DNA of 41,480 bases from Microcaldota archaeon. Its GTDB lineage: Archaea > Micrarchaeota > Micrarchaeia > Micrarchaeales > CABMGC01. The DNA lies in NCBI GenBank assembly GCA_030040265.1, contig JASHUB010000003.1, positions 1 through 41,480 of the forward strand. The letters run 5' to 3'. The translations under genes and the position numbers were made by a program. How positions within the stretch are numbered: position 1 is the stretch's first letter; each line of letters starts with the position of its first letter. The notes under the pieces were generated by a model. That model was not told the DNA's origin. It was given only the letters and a program-made list of their open reading frames with translations, and ran no database searches. Positions 18,100-35,479 of this stretch are shown in pieces.

Positions 18100-18220
18100 T
18101 GGCGGGGGCGGGATTTGAACACGCGACCTCTAGATTTCTTAGCAATCACAGCACAAGGCTCATCACTCATAATGCTTTGCATATGAGTCTAGCGCTCTAA
18201 CCAGGCTGAGCTACCCCGCC
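18100..18220 (-). tRNA. tRNA-Met(CAT), intron-containing (canonical 37/38 site, ~46-nt intron about 18136-18181)
   Basis: GGCGGGG/CCCCGCC acceptor, D-arm GCTCAGCCTGGTTAGAGC, CTAGA/TCTAG anticodon stem, anticodon CAT, T-loop TTCAAAT; one T-stem mismatch. Confidence 0.9.
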
Positions 18221-30723: not shown

Positions 30724-31545
30724 GTGTCCGACGCAGACCTAGCCAAGTACATCAAACAGGTCAGCCTGCCAAAGCAAGGAAAGAAGGAGTGCAAGGCTTG
30801 CGGATCGGATGTCCGCTCGCCAAACAAAGACGGGATATGCCATTTCTGCGAACTTCCATGCACCATGGCGGCAAAAAACGTTGACAAGTCAGCGTCAAAG
30901 TCCATCGAGACCGTGTGGCAGCTAATAGGAGACTCAAAGTGGGATGCCGCTGCGACTTATTTCCCGTCCATCGCGGGACAGAAAGACGACCCAGTCTCAG
31001 TGTACTGCGCAGGTATATTCTACCGCTACTATTCGGATCGCCAGTACCACGATCAGGACCACAACCTTTTGGGATACATGGAGCAGAATGCGAAGAACAT
31101 GCACGACTCGCTCTACACTATCGTCACCGCGAAGGATTACCTGTTCCGGGCGATAAAACTCGTGTCGCTCGACCAGGATGCGCAGCGGGACGAGAAGCTG
31201 CTCTACCTAGATTTCATAACCAACGTGCGTCTGAAGAGGCTTCACCTCGCGGCAAAGACGCTCCAGCTTCTCAATGCACTGCAAAAGACTAGCATCGCCA
31301 CGGAATACGCCAACATGGTCTACGCGGTCGAGACTTCGGACAAGTCTGCTGAGGAAAAGCTGTCCATGATGCTCAACAAGCAGGAACCGAACGCTTACTA
31401 TTACCTTGCGCTGCATCTGGTGCAGAAAAAGAGGCTCCGTGATGCTTTGACAGTGCTCGATGCGCTTTCGAAGTCGGTCCACATGCCTATGGCAGAGGAA
31501 CTTTCACGCAAGGTAAGGATAACGATGCAGGCAAGCGCGCTCTAG
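30724..31545 (+). CDS. Zinc-ribbon plus helical (TPR-like) protein of unknown function
   Basis: 273 aa, GTG start; CKACGSDVRSPNKDGICHFC then alpha-helical repeats. Confidence 0.65.
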   Translation: MSDADLAKYIKQVSLPKQGKKECKACGSDVRSPNKDGICHFCELPCTMAAKNVDKSASKSIETVWQLIGDSKWDAAATYFPSIAGQKDDPVSVYCAGIFYRYYSDRQYHDQDHNLLGYMEQNAKNMHDSLYTIVTAKDYLFRAIKLVSLDQDAQRDEKLLYLDFITNVRLKRLHLAAKTLQLLNALQKTSIATEYANMVYAVETSDKSAEEKLSMMLNKQEPNAYYYLALHLVQKKRLRDALTVLDALSKSVHMPMAEELSRKVRITMQASAL

Positions 31546-32990
31546 CCCTTCACAACGCCCAACGGGGCGTTTCTTGCCACGATGTCCGCCAGGCCCGCCT
31601 TCTGGACGACGCTGACAACATCGTCAACATTCTTGTACGCCCACTCCGCCTCCTCACTTATAAGCTTCCTGCTCTTGACCATGATCTGGACGCCCTTCTT
31701 TTCCAGCGCATCGAAAGTCTTTTCCGCAGGGATGTCGCGGAGGGCCTGATGCCTCGACATCACCCTGCCGGAACCGTGGCACGAAGACCCAAAGGTCTCC
31801 TTCATCGAGCCTTCGGCTCCGCAGAGCACATAGCTCGCAGTGCTCATGCTTCCAGGTATGAGGACTGGCTGGCCGACGCTACGGTAAGCGGAGTTGACCT
31901 CTTTATGCCCTTTCGGGAACGATCTTGTCGCACCCTTCCTGTGCACGAGGAGCTTCATCCTCTTTCCATCCACGCTGTGCTCCTCTAGCTTCACGATGTT
32001 GTGGGCCACGTCATAAAGAAGTTCCATGCCGAGCGCGTCGCTGCTCTTGCCGAAGACCTCCTCAAAGCTCTTCCTCACCGAGTTGGTGATTATCTGCCTG
32101 TTCGTGAACGCAAAGTTGACCGCGCATCTCATCGCGCCGAGATAGTCCTGCGCCTCCTGGTCCCCAACATGTGCGTAGCTCAGTTCTGGGTCGACGAGCT
32201 TTATGTCCTTCTGCTGCTGATACGGGACAAGCCTCTTCAGAAAGTCGCTGCAAATCTGGTGACCAAAGCCGCGCGAACCGGTGTGAACCATCACTACCAC
32301 CTGTCCCTCGCTAAGCCCGTAGACCTTCGCGACGTCCTTCTTGAATATCTTCTCCACTTTCTGGATTTCGAGGAAGTGGTTGCCCGATCCGAGAGTTCCG
32401 AGTTCGTGTTTCCCTCTGGCTCTTGCGTCCTTGCTGACCTTGTCGAATGCCGCCCCTTTCATGGTTCCCATCTCTTCGGTGAACTCGATGTCATCCTTCT
32501 GCCCAAAACCTTTGGAGACTGCATACTCTACGCCCTCTTCGCAGATTCTTTCAAGGTCGTCCGCAGTCAGTCCCGTCTTCAGTTCGCTGCCCACACCGCT
32601 GGGCACGTTCTTGAAGAGTAGTCCAAGCAGTTGGTGCATCTTCGGCTTCAGGTCTTTCTCGGTCAGGTTGGTCTTGATCAGCCTGACCCCGCAGTTTATG
32701 TCGTAGCCACAGGCTCCGGGCGACACAATGCCATTTTCTGCATCAAAAGCAACCACGCCGCCTACCGGAAGCCCGTATCCTTCGTGGCCATCTGGCATCA
32801 CGAGCACGTTCCCGGCTATCCCTGGCATGGTGGTGGCGTTGACCGCCTGGTTTATTGTGTGGTCCTTCTTTATCTTTTCAAAAAGCGCATCGTTTGCGTA
32901 GAGTGTCACGCCGGTCGTCATGCCTTGTTTCTCGTCCTTTTCGATGGCATATCTGACTTCGTCTACCTTCGTTATCTCCATCAGAATCAA
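31542..32990 (-). CDS. rtcB: RNA-splicing ligase RtcB
   Basis: 482 aa; MPDGHEGYGLPVGGVVAF, GACGYDINCGVRL, LGSGNHFLEIQKVE, VMVHTGSRGFGHQI, SCHGSGRVMSRHQA; start may be 32981. Confidence 0.95.
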   Translation of the reverse strand: MILMEITKVDEVRYAIEKDEKQGMTTGVTLYANDALFEKIKKDHTINQAVNATTMPGIAGNVLVMPDGHEGYGLPVGGVVAFDAENGIVSPGACGYDINCGVRLIKTNLTEKDLKPKMHQLLGLLFKNVPSGVGSELKTGLTADDLERICEEGVEYAVSKGFGQKDDIEFTEEMGTMKGAAFDKVSKDARARGKHELGTLGSGNHFLEIQKVEKIFKKDVAKVYGLSEGQVVVMVHTGSRGFGHQICSDFLKRLVPYQQQKDIKLVDPELSYAHVGDQEAQDYLGAMRCAVNFAFTNRQIITNSVRKSFEEVFGKSSDALGMELLYDVAHNIVKLEEHSVDGKRMKLLVHRKGATRSFPKGHKEVNSAYRSVGQPVLIPGSMSTASYVLCGAEGSMKETFGSSCHGSGRVMSRHQALRDIPAEKTFDALEKKGVQIMVKSRKLISEEAEWAYKNVDDVVSVVQKAGLADIVARNAPLGVVKG

Positions 32991-34549: not shown

Positions 34550-34560
34550 AGGGTTTAAAA

Positions 34561-34586
34561 CACAACATAACAATCAATATGTTGTG
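34561..34586. repeat. Perfect 9-bp inverted repeat CACAACATA-N8-TATGTTGTG abutting the tRNA-Leu 5' end
   Basis: Arms 34561-34569 and 34578-34586; last base is G1 of the tRNA. Confidence 0.8.
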
Positions 34587-34689
34587 CAGGGATGGCGGAG
34601 CCTGGTCAAACGCGGCAGACTCAAGATCTGTTGGCTTAGGCCTACGGGAGTTCAATAACAGAAATGTTGGACAAATCTCTCTCCCTGCA
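34586..34689 (+). tRNA. tRNA-Leu(CAA) with a 19-nt non-canonical T-loop intron (about 34656-34674)
   Basis: GCAGGGA/TCCCTGC acceptor, GCAGA-CTCAAGA-TCTGT anticodon arm, long variable arm, T-stem GGGAG/CTCTC; T-loop TTCAAAT restored only by removing 19 nt (TAACAGAAATGTTGGACAA, boundaries ambiguous by CAA repeat). Confidence 0.88.
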
Positions 34690-34708: not shown

Positions 34709-35479
34709 ATGGCGAAATCACGAAACACTAGAAAGAATACGACAAGGGCGAAGCCCAAGTTCAAGCCTAAGGCTAGGCGACCAGCTGCGAAGAAGGATCA
34801 GGCACCCAAGAAGGCGATAATCTCAAAGATAAAGAAGGCAAGGATAAAGGAGAAGGTCATGCTCGACATACCACACTACCCGCAGACAGAGGAGTTCACA
34901 AGCTCTGCCGCCTGTGCAATGATGGTCCTGAAGTACATAGACCCAGAGTTCAAGTTCAAGAAGGACCACGAATACAGCATCTGGCAGGAGGCCGTCAACG
35001 GCAGCGTATGGCACGGTTCGAAATACGGCCTTGCTTACGCTCTCGCGAAGCGCGGCGCAAAGGTCGGCATAATAAGCAACACAAAGGACGAGGGATACGA
35101 GCGGAAGCTTGCGGTGTACGAGAACGTCAACCTTGACACGCTCAATGCGTCGTTCAGCGAGATAAAGCAGAAGTCTGAGGCGCTGGGCAACGAAGAGGAG
35201 AACGGCTCGGTGTCGCTGCAGACCGTAAAGAAGGCCCTGTCCTCGAACTACATACCGATAGTGCTCATAGATGCGAACGTCATAAACCCGTATCTCGAGT
35301 CGTCTCCACACTGGATAGTGGTCAAGGGCTACGAGAAGGATGCGTTCTACATAAACGACCCGTACTCGGACAGCACGGTAACCCTGGATGCCAACTCGTT
35401 CAAGTCAGCTGTCGGCTTCGATGAGAACAGCCACCTGATAGCCGTCGATGTAAGGCCAGGCAAGCCGAAGAAGAACTAG
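34709..35479 (+). CDS. C39-like papain-fold peptidase-family protein with basic N-terminus
   Basis: Start MAKSRNTRKN; LDIPHYPQTEEFTSSAACAMMVLKYI (candidate Cys), HWIVVKGYEKDAFYINDPY (candidate His/Asp). Confidence 0.75.
   Translation: MAKSRNTRKNTTRAKPKFKPKARRPAAKKDQAPKKAIISKIKKARIKEKVMLDIPHYPQTEEFTSSAACAMMVLKYIDPEFKFKKDHEYSIWQEAVNGSVWHGSKYGLAYALAKRGAKVGIISNTKDEGYERKLAVYENVNLDTLNASFSEIKQKSEALGNEEENGSVSLQTVKKALSSNYIPIVLIDANVINPYLESSPHWIVVKGYEKDAFYINDPYSDSTVTLDANSFKSAVGFDENSHLIAVDVRPGKPKKN

What the first reader, a model, noticed from the sequence alone, without database searches (positions are those of the whole stretch)
34586..34689. tRNA-Leu(CAA) with a 19-nt intron inside the T-loop
All arms fold normally and the anticodon loop is the standard 7 nt with no intron. 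The T-arm reads GGGAG-TTCAATAACAGAAATGTTGGACAAAT-CTCTC. Removing TAACAGAAATGTTGGACAA gives a perfect TTCAAAT loop. The insert can form AACA-GAAA-TGTT, a GNRA-capped stem suggestive of a relaxed bulge-helix-bulge. Non-canonical tRNA introns are known in some archaea, but one this short in the T-loop is noteworthy. The CAA duplication leaves exact splice sites ambiguous.
Basis: partly seen in the sequence, partly recalled or inferred. Interest (0 to 1): 0.75.

Follow-up and report, generated by a model that had tools for sequence, protein, structure and literature searches.

The report
Tiny conserved intron in tRNA-Leu T-loop
In almost every sampled member of one order of tiny Micrarchaeota archaea, the gene for one leucine tRNA is interrupted in its T-loop by a 10-21 nucleotide intron that the tRNA splicing enzyme appears to recognise after the tRNA's T-stem slips by one register; it is a neat, deeply conserved variant of a known kind of archaeal tRNA intron.

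Summary
Confirmed. Window 34586-34689 (+) is the genome's only detected tRNA-Leu(CAA), with a 19-nt insert in the T loop. It is a real bulge-helix-bulge (BHB) intron. The same insert (10-21 nt) sits in the same tRNA, upstream of the same gene, in about 126 genomes of this Micrarchaeota order. Eight genomes of the order have a plain 7-nt T loop, three of them at the syntenic locus. All 115 distinct intron-containing T arms pair G53-U54-U55-C56 with GAAC, or a G-U-compatible variant, at one fixed offset; no other offset does this. Comparative variation settles the "CAA" ambiguity: the junction is 58/59 (intron 34656-34674). The window insert fits a strict hBHBh' motif if the T stem slips one register (49-52 with 60-63); unconstrained folding picks that register. 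T-loop introns elsewhere in the class, and in Ca. Micrarchaeum harzensis tRNA-Arg, use the known 59/60 position in normal register. The genome encodes an ARMAN-2-type epsilon2 endonuclease with all catalytic residues, and an RtcB ligase in this same window. New elements: order-wide conservation, the 58/59 site, the slipped T stem, one 10-nt intron. Splicing itself is not shown experimentally.

The parts
34586..34689 (+). pre-tRNA-Leu(CAA) gene, 104 nt (mature 85 nt after removal of 19 nt)
   Evidence: cmscan RF00005 41.2 bits; ARAGORN calls tRNA-Leu(caa) on the spliced sequence only
34656..34674 (+). intron TAACAGAAATGTTGGACAA between T-loop positions 58 and 59
   Evidence: intronless orthologues with TTCAAAT/TTCGAAT loops; junction fixed by variants in relatives
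34650..34653 (+). exon strand of the central BHB helix: G53 T54 T55 C56
   Evidence: pairs in 115/115 distinct T arms
34669..34672 (+). intron strand of the central BHB helix: GGAC (GAAC/GAGC/GGAC/GAAT/GGGC in relatives)
34654..34656 (+). 5' bulge A57 A58 ^ T with the 5' splice site after the second base
   Evidence: position relative to the central helix; cleavage rule from BHB literature
34673..34675 (+). 3' bulge A A ^ A59 with the 3' splice site after the second base
34646..34649 (+). outer helix, 5' strand (positions 49-52, GGGA), pairing in slipped register with 60-63
   Evidence: chosen by unconstrained MFE of the T arm and of the whole pre-tRNA
34676..34679 (+). outer helix, 3' strand (positions 60-63, TCTC)
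34657..34668 (+). inner helix AACA:TGTT with GAAA loop (h' of hBHBh'); absent in the shorter introns of relatives
   Evidence: sequence
34554..34559 (+). possible TATA-like element TTTAAA about 27-32 nt upstream of the tRNA
   Evidence: sequence only; inferred
34709..35479 (+). neighbouring gene, peptidase C39-like (DUF3335), syntenic marker of the locus
   Evidence: Pfam PF11814 E 1e-24; relative next to the tRNA in 57 of 60 loci
31545..32990 (-). RtcB-type RNA ligase, the expected exon-joining enzyme
   Evidence: PF01139 545.9 bits, E 1.6e-164

Best explanation
The 19-nt insert is a protein-spliced BHB intron at position 58/59 of tRNA-Leu(CAA). In the precursor, G53-C56 leave the T stem and loop and pair with the intron's GGAC. 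The rest of the T stem slips one register (49-52 with 60-63), giving two 3-nt bulges around a 4-bp helix. The ARMAN-2-type epsilon2 endonuclease cuts after the second base of each bulge, and RtcB joins the exons. The T stem then returns to its normal register around a standard 7-nt loop TTCAAAT. Shown: conservation, the complementarity, the mature-like intronless orthologues, the presence of both enzymes, and that the slipped fold is the predicted minimum for this window. Inferred: actual cleavage, ligation, and that the slipped form (rather than the normal register with a 5-nt bulge) is what the enzyme binds (about 0.6).
For: Same insert in about 126 genomes of the order, at one locus (57 of 60 loci beside the same C39-like gene). 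Eight intronless genomes in the order, three of them syntenic (L062, L064, L066), and 93-94%-identical intronless tRNAs in another family of the class outside the order. 115/115 distinct T arms pair 53-56 with the intron exactly 4 nt before C61; every other offset is lower. The five intron tetramers differ only by G-U-compatible changes. Only junction 58/59 gives C56, R57 and A58 in all variants...AC|AT and ...AT|AT arms exclude 56/57 and 57/58, GAAT arms exclude 55/56. Unconstrained MFE gives slipped register plus central helix for the window T arm and the whole pre-tRNA (z -2.6). Endonuclease: 207/372 identities to ARMAN-2 EndA, with Y160, K161, Y236, H251 and K282 all kept. RtcB lies in the window.
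Against: No RNA data. For GGGAG/CTCCC stems the normal outer register (5-nt 3' bulge) is as stable as or more stable than the slipped one: the slipped outer helix with the central helix is in the MFE of 49/115 arms, and 21/115 prefer the plain T stem. A slippable GAGAG T stem also occurs in intronless tRNA-Leu(CAG) (L068), so it is not specific to intron-bearing genes. In most relatives the intron is too short for an inner helix, so their 5' site lies in a loop (relaxed hBH form). In the window, a continuous helix without the 5' bulge competes with the full hBHBh' drawing.
Confidence: 0.93

Rival explanations
1. BHB intron at 58/59, but recognised with the T stem in normal register (49-52 with 62-65) and a 5-nt 3' bulge: a relaxed motif tolerated by the broad-specificity epsilon2 enzyme, without slippage.
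For: 40 of 115 arms have the central helix without the slipped outer helix in their MFE; where inspected (L010) the outer helix is in normal register. Epsilon2 enzymes with an ASL accept relaxed motifs (PMC12397907, PMC6379350).
Against: The central helix and cut sites fall exactly where a 3-nt bulge needs them. 113/115 arms can form the slipped 4-bp outer helix. The window, and the GAGAG/CTCTC arms inspected, prefer the slipped form.
Confidence: 0.35
2. The insert stays in the mature tRNA as an enlarged T loop.
For: No expression data exclude it directly.
Against: Length and sequence vary freely (10-21 nt) except for the BHB-forming bases. Related species have a plain 7-nt loop at the same locus. 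The elbow bases T54 T55 C56 A58 are kept, and a normal loop around them is restored only by splicing.
Confidence: 0.03
3. Pseudogene, with an intact tRNA-Leu(CAA) elsewhere.
For: The MAG is 77.5% complete, so a second copy could be missing.
Against: All stems are intact. No second tRNA-Leu(CAA) turned up in the single-contig genomes G029, G042 and G059 by similarity search; further Leu genes read there and in A_DKE are CAG, GAG or TAG. The insert is conserved across two families.
Confidence: 0.02
4. A 59/60 intron of the known type, mis-registered.
For: Seven of eight comparison T-loop introns fit 59/60.
Against: For the order's tRNA-Leu(CAA), the 59/60 geometry (helix 54-57, 3 nt before C61) pairs in 0 of 115 arms.
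Confidence: 0.02

Closest known systems
Archaeal non-canonical BHB tRNA introns at T-loop position 59/60 (PMC4090602; also the split point of permuted tRNAs in Thermofilum, PMC3218864)
   Same: T-loop position, 4-bp central helix, 3-nt bulges, protein splicing
   Different: Here the junction is 58/59, the central helix uses 53-56 rather than 54-57, and the T stem must slip to keep a 3-nt bulge; the intron is shared by one isoacceptor across an order
ARMAN-1/ARMAN-2 tRNA introns cut by the epsilon2 endonuclease (Fujishima 2011, not readable here; PMC12397907; PMC4033280)
   Same: Same lineage and enzyme type; broad substrate range including non-canonical positions
Very short T-arm insertions in nucleomorph tRNAs of Guillardia theta (3-24 nt; cited in PMC4090602)
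   Same: Short insert in the T arm, excised
   Different: Eukaryotic; the mechanism for the shortest ones is unknown

Membership tests
Archaeal BHB tRNA intron | 4-bp helix between exon and intron | tested here: met
   115/115 distinct arms, window G53-C56:GGAC
Archaeal BHB tRNA intron | two 3-nt bulges carrying the splice sites | tested here: inconclusive
   Possible in the window if the T stem is slipped, which is its MFE register; in normal register the 3' bulge is 5 nt
Archaeal BHB tRNA intron | removal gives a normal tRNA | tested here: met
   ARAGORN finds tRNA-Leu(caa) only in the spliced sequence; intronless orthologues match it
Archaeal BHB tRNA intron | a splicing endonuclease able to cut it | tested here: met
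   epsilon2-type EndA gene with catalytic triad and ASL Y/K present; activity on this substrate was not tested
Archaeal BHB tRNA intron | in vivo excision and ligation | not testable with these tools
   no RNA data; RtcB gene present
59/60 T-loop BHB intron | central helix 54-57, junction 59/60, normal T-stem register | tested here: not met
   0/115 arms fit; 7/8 comparison introns do

The most novel reading that the evidence does not exclude
A splice site built by strand slippage of a tRNA stem: the purine-rich T stem switches register to create a strict BHB around 58/59, and switches back after splicing. It has been kept through the history of an order with introns as short as 10 nt, below the 11-nt archaeal minimum quoted in a 2014 review, and may derive from a 59/60 intron by a one-base shift.
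Probability: 0.45. Interest if true: 0.55.

Novelty: new variant of a known kind. Interest (0 to 1): 0.42.

Why it matters
It gives about 126 natural variants of one minimal splicing substrate plus eight natural absences, for an enzyme type (ARMAN-2 EndA) that already has a crystal structure with RNA. That makes it a direct test of how small and how distorted a BHB can be, and of whether a tRNA stem can change register for splicing. In practice, ARAGORN misses this gene, so tRNA-Leu(CAA) may be wrongly reported absent in Micrarchaeota. The elbow can form, and its bases be modified in the normal context, only after splicing, so the order of processing steps is probably constrained (inference).

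Tried and rejected
Tried: reading the insert as the known 59/60 intron (rejected, 0/115). Splice junctions 55/56, 56/57 and 57/58 (rejected because some relatives would then lose C56, R57 or A58). T-loop introns elsewhere in this genome (none seen in the long tRNAs aligned). The idea that the slippable T stem evolved for the intron (not supported: intronless tRNA-Leu(CAG) L068 has it too). One parse of L068 as intron-containing was spurious and was removed. Literature searches by position number were impossible and the 2011 ARMAN endonuclease paper is not held, so priority for ARMAN-2 tRNA-Leu(CAA) could not be checked. Searches for Ca. Micrarchaeum harzensis tRNA introns found nothing.

Full report
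OBSERVATION. cmscan finds a tRNA at exactly 34586-34689 (+), 41.2 bits, with all pairs intact and the extra bases in the T loop. ARAGORN does not see it, but recognises tRNA-Leu(caa) after the 19 nt are taken out. The anticodon loop is standard. The gene is the only tRNA-Leu(CAA) detected in its genome, an 805-kb, 71-contig MAG of 77.5% completeness; the second hit, C31:10527, is tRNA-Leu(CAG) without an intron (L068). The long tRNAs of this genome that I aligned have anticodon-loop introns only.

THE LINEAGE. The window species' splicing endonuclease matches the solved ARMAN-2 enzyme (4fz2/9w2k) at 480 bits, E 5e-143.

THE INSERT IS CONSERVED AND SOMETIMES CLEANLY ABSENT. A search of 61 genomes of the order found tRNA-Leu(CAA) in nearly all, and a phylum sample added more. 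After reading the sequences, about 126 genomes of the order carry a T-loop insert of 10-21 nt, mode 13 (134 loci less eight fetched twice; 115 distinct T arms). Eight do not: G003, G183, G208, G272, G277 (one genus, in which G029 has the intron), G040, G048 and G051. Their loops are TTCAAAT or TTCGAAT. The tRNA lies next to the same C39-like gene in 57 of 60 loci, including the intronless L062, L064 and L066, so presence and absence are compared at one orthologous site. Four genomes of another family in the class have an intronless tRNA 93-94% identical to the spliced form. Intron-bearing and intronless species share several genera, so at least three to four independent losses are the simplest reading (inference; no tree was built).

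ANATOMY. I scanned all placements of a 4-bp helix between positions 49-61 and the insert. One placement pairs in 115 of 115 arms: G53 T54 T55 C56 with the four bases that end 4 nt before C61. The runners-up (84, 44, 16) are the same helix extended inward. The intron strand is GAAC (86), GAGC (11), GGAC (10), GAAT (7) or GGGC (1): every change is a G-U-compatible one. By base composition a random tetramer would fit about 2% of the time. MFE folds contain this helix in 89 of 115 arms against about 0.5% when introns are shuffled. The sequences are related, so these counts are not independent events; the precision of the offset against freely varying flanks is the stronger point.

SPLICE JUNCTION. 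Relatives resolve this. Arms ending ...GAACAC|AT or ...AT|AT would put C or U at position 58 if the junction were 56/57 or 57/58; arms with GAAT would lose C56 at junction 55/56. Only 58/59 restores C56, R57 and A58 throughout. This is also where the BHB rule predicts cleavage: two bases after each strand of the central helix, between the second and third bulge base, as in the ARMAN-2 complex where the bond after the central bulge base is cut (PMC12397907; BHB definition PMC7714728).

SLIPPED T STEM. G53 cannot pair with both C61 and the intron. If the remaining T stem keeps its register, the 3' bulge is 5 nt. If 49-52 pair with 60-63 instead, the bulge is the canonical AA^A. In the window this slipped form is the unconstrained minimum both for the T arm (-8.2 versus -6.9 kcal/mol for the normal stem) and for the whole pre-tRNA (-36.8 kcal/mol, z -2.6). 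With the inner AACA:TGTT helix the 19 nt can be written as a complete hBHBh' motif: bulge AA^T, helix GUUC:GGAC, bulge AA^A. The MFE itself draws a continuous 8-bp helix in place of the 5' bulge, so the two forms compete. Across relatives the slipped helix is possible in 113/115 arms but is in the MFE with the central helix in only 49; stems of the GGGAG/CTCCC kind can favour the normal register. I therefore hold splicing at 58/59 as near certain and slippage as more likely than not (about 0.6).

COMPARISON WITHIN THE PHYLUM. T-loop introns also occur outside the order (L176, L179, L185, L190, L191, L195) and in A_DKE tRNA-Arg(CCT) and tRNA-Arg(TCT) (L324, L325). Seven of those eight fit the known 59/60 geometry, helix 54-57 and bulge NN^U60 in normal register. 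The order's tRNA-Leu(CAA) intron is thus the same architecture displaced by one base, whether by descent or independently. Several outgroup tRNA-Leu(CAA) genes also carry a canonical anticodon-loop intron, which the order's genes lack.

MACHINERY. The genome's EndA (L039) keeps the catalytic triad (Y236, H251, K282) and the ARMAN-specific-loop Y160 and K161 of the ARMAN-2 enzyme. That loop confers broad specificity (PMC6379350, PMC12397907). An RtcB ligase gene lies at about 31545-32990 (-) in this window.

NOVELTY. A 2014 review lists archaeal intron lengths of 11-129 nt (medians mostly 12-25) and positions including 53/54, 56/57 and 59/60 'etc.' (PMC4090602), so a 19-nt T-loop intron is not in itself exceptional. 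What I did not find described: near-fixation of one at 58/59 in a whole order, dependence on a slipped stem, and a 10-nt case (L057). The 2011 ARMAN endonuclease paper was not available and may list the ARMAN-2 instance.

Noticed in passing
window 18100-18220 (-): tRNA-Met(CAT) with an anticodon-loop intron of about 46 nt, missed by ARAGORN but found by cmscan.
   Followed up: partly
L324 and L325 (A_DKE genome G083:C1 about 330560 and 160770): tRNA-Arg(CCT) and tRNA-Arg(TCT) carry T-loop introns at 59/60 (21 nt and about 33 nt); Rfam scores them poorly or truncates them.
   Followed up: partly
L328 (G001:C8:133699-133805): tRNA-Ser(GCT) of the sister species appears to have a D-loop intron of about 25 nt.
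   Followed up: no
L072 314-385 (-), G000:C42:9213-9284: Degenerate tRNA-like sequence with a broken acceptor stem (34.7 bits); tRNA relic, attachment-site remnant, or a tRNA with an unrecognised 3' intron.
   Followed up: no
L176, L190, L191, L195: tRNA-Leu genes of other Micrarchaeota with longer (tens of nt) 59/60 T-loop introns; L191 and L195 also carry an anticodon-loop intron.
   Followed up: partly
window 31545-32990 (-): RtcB ligase gene lies within 3 kb of the intron-bearing tRNA; probably coincidence, but its linkage in relatives was not examined.
   Followed up: no
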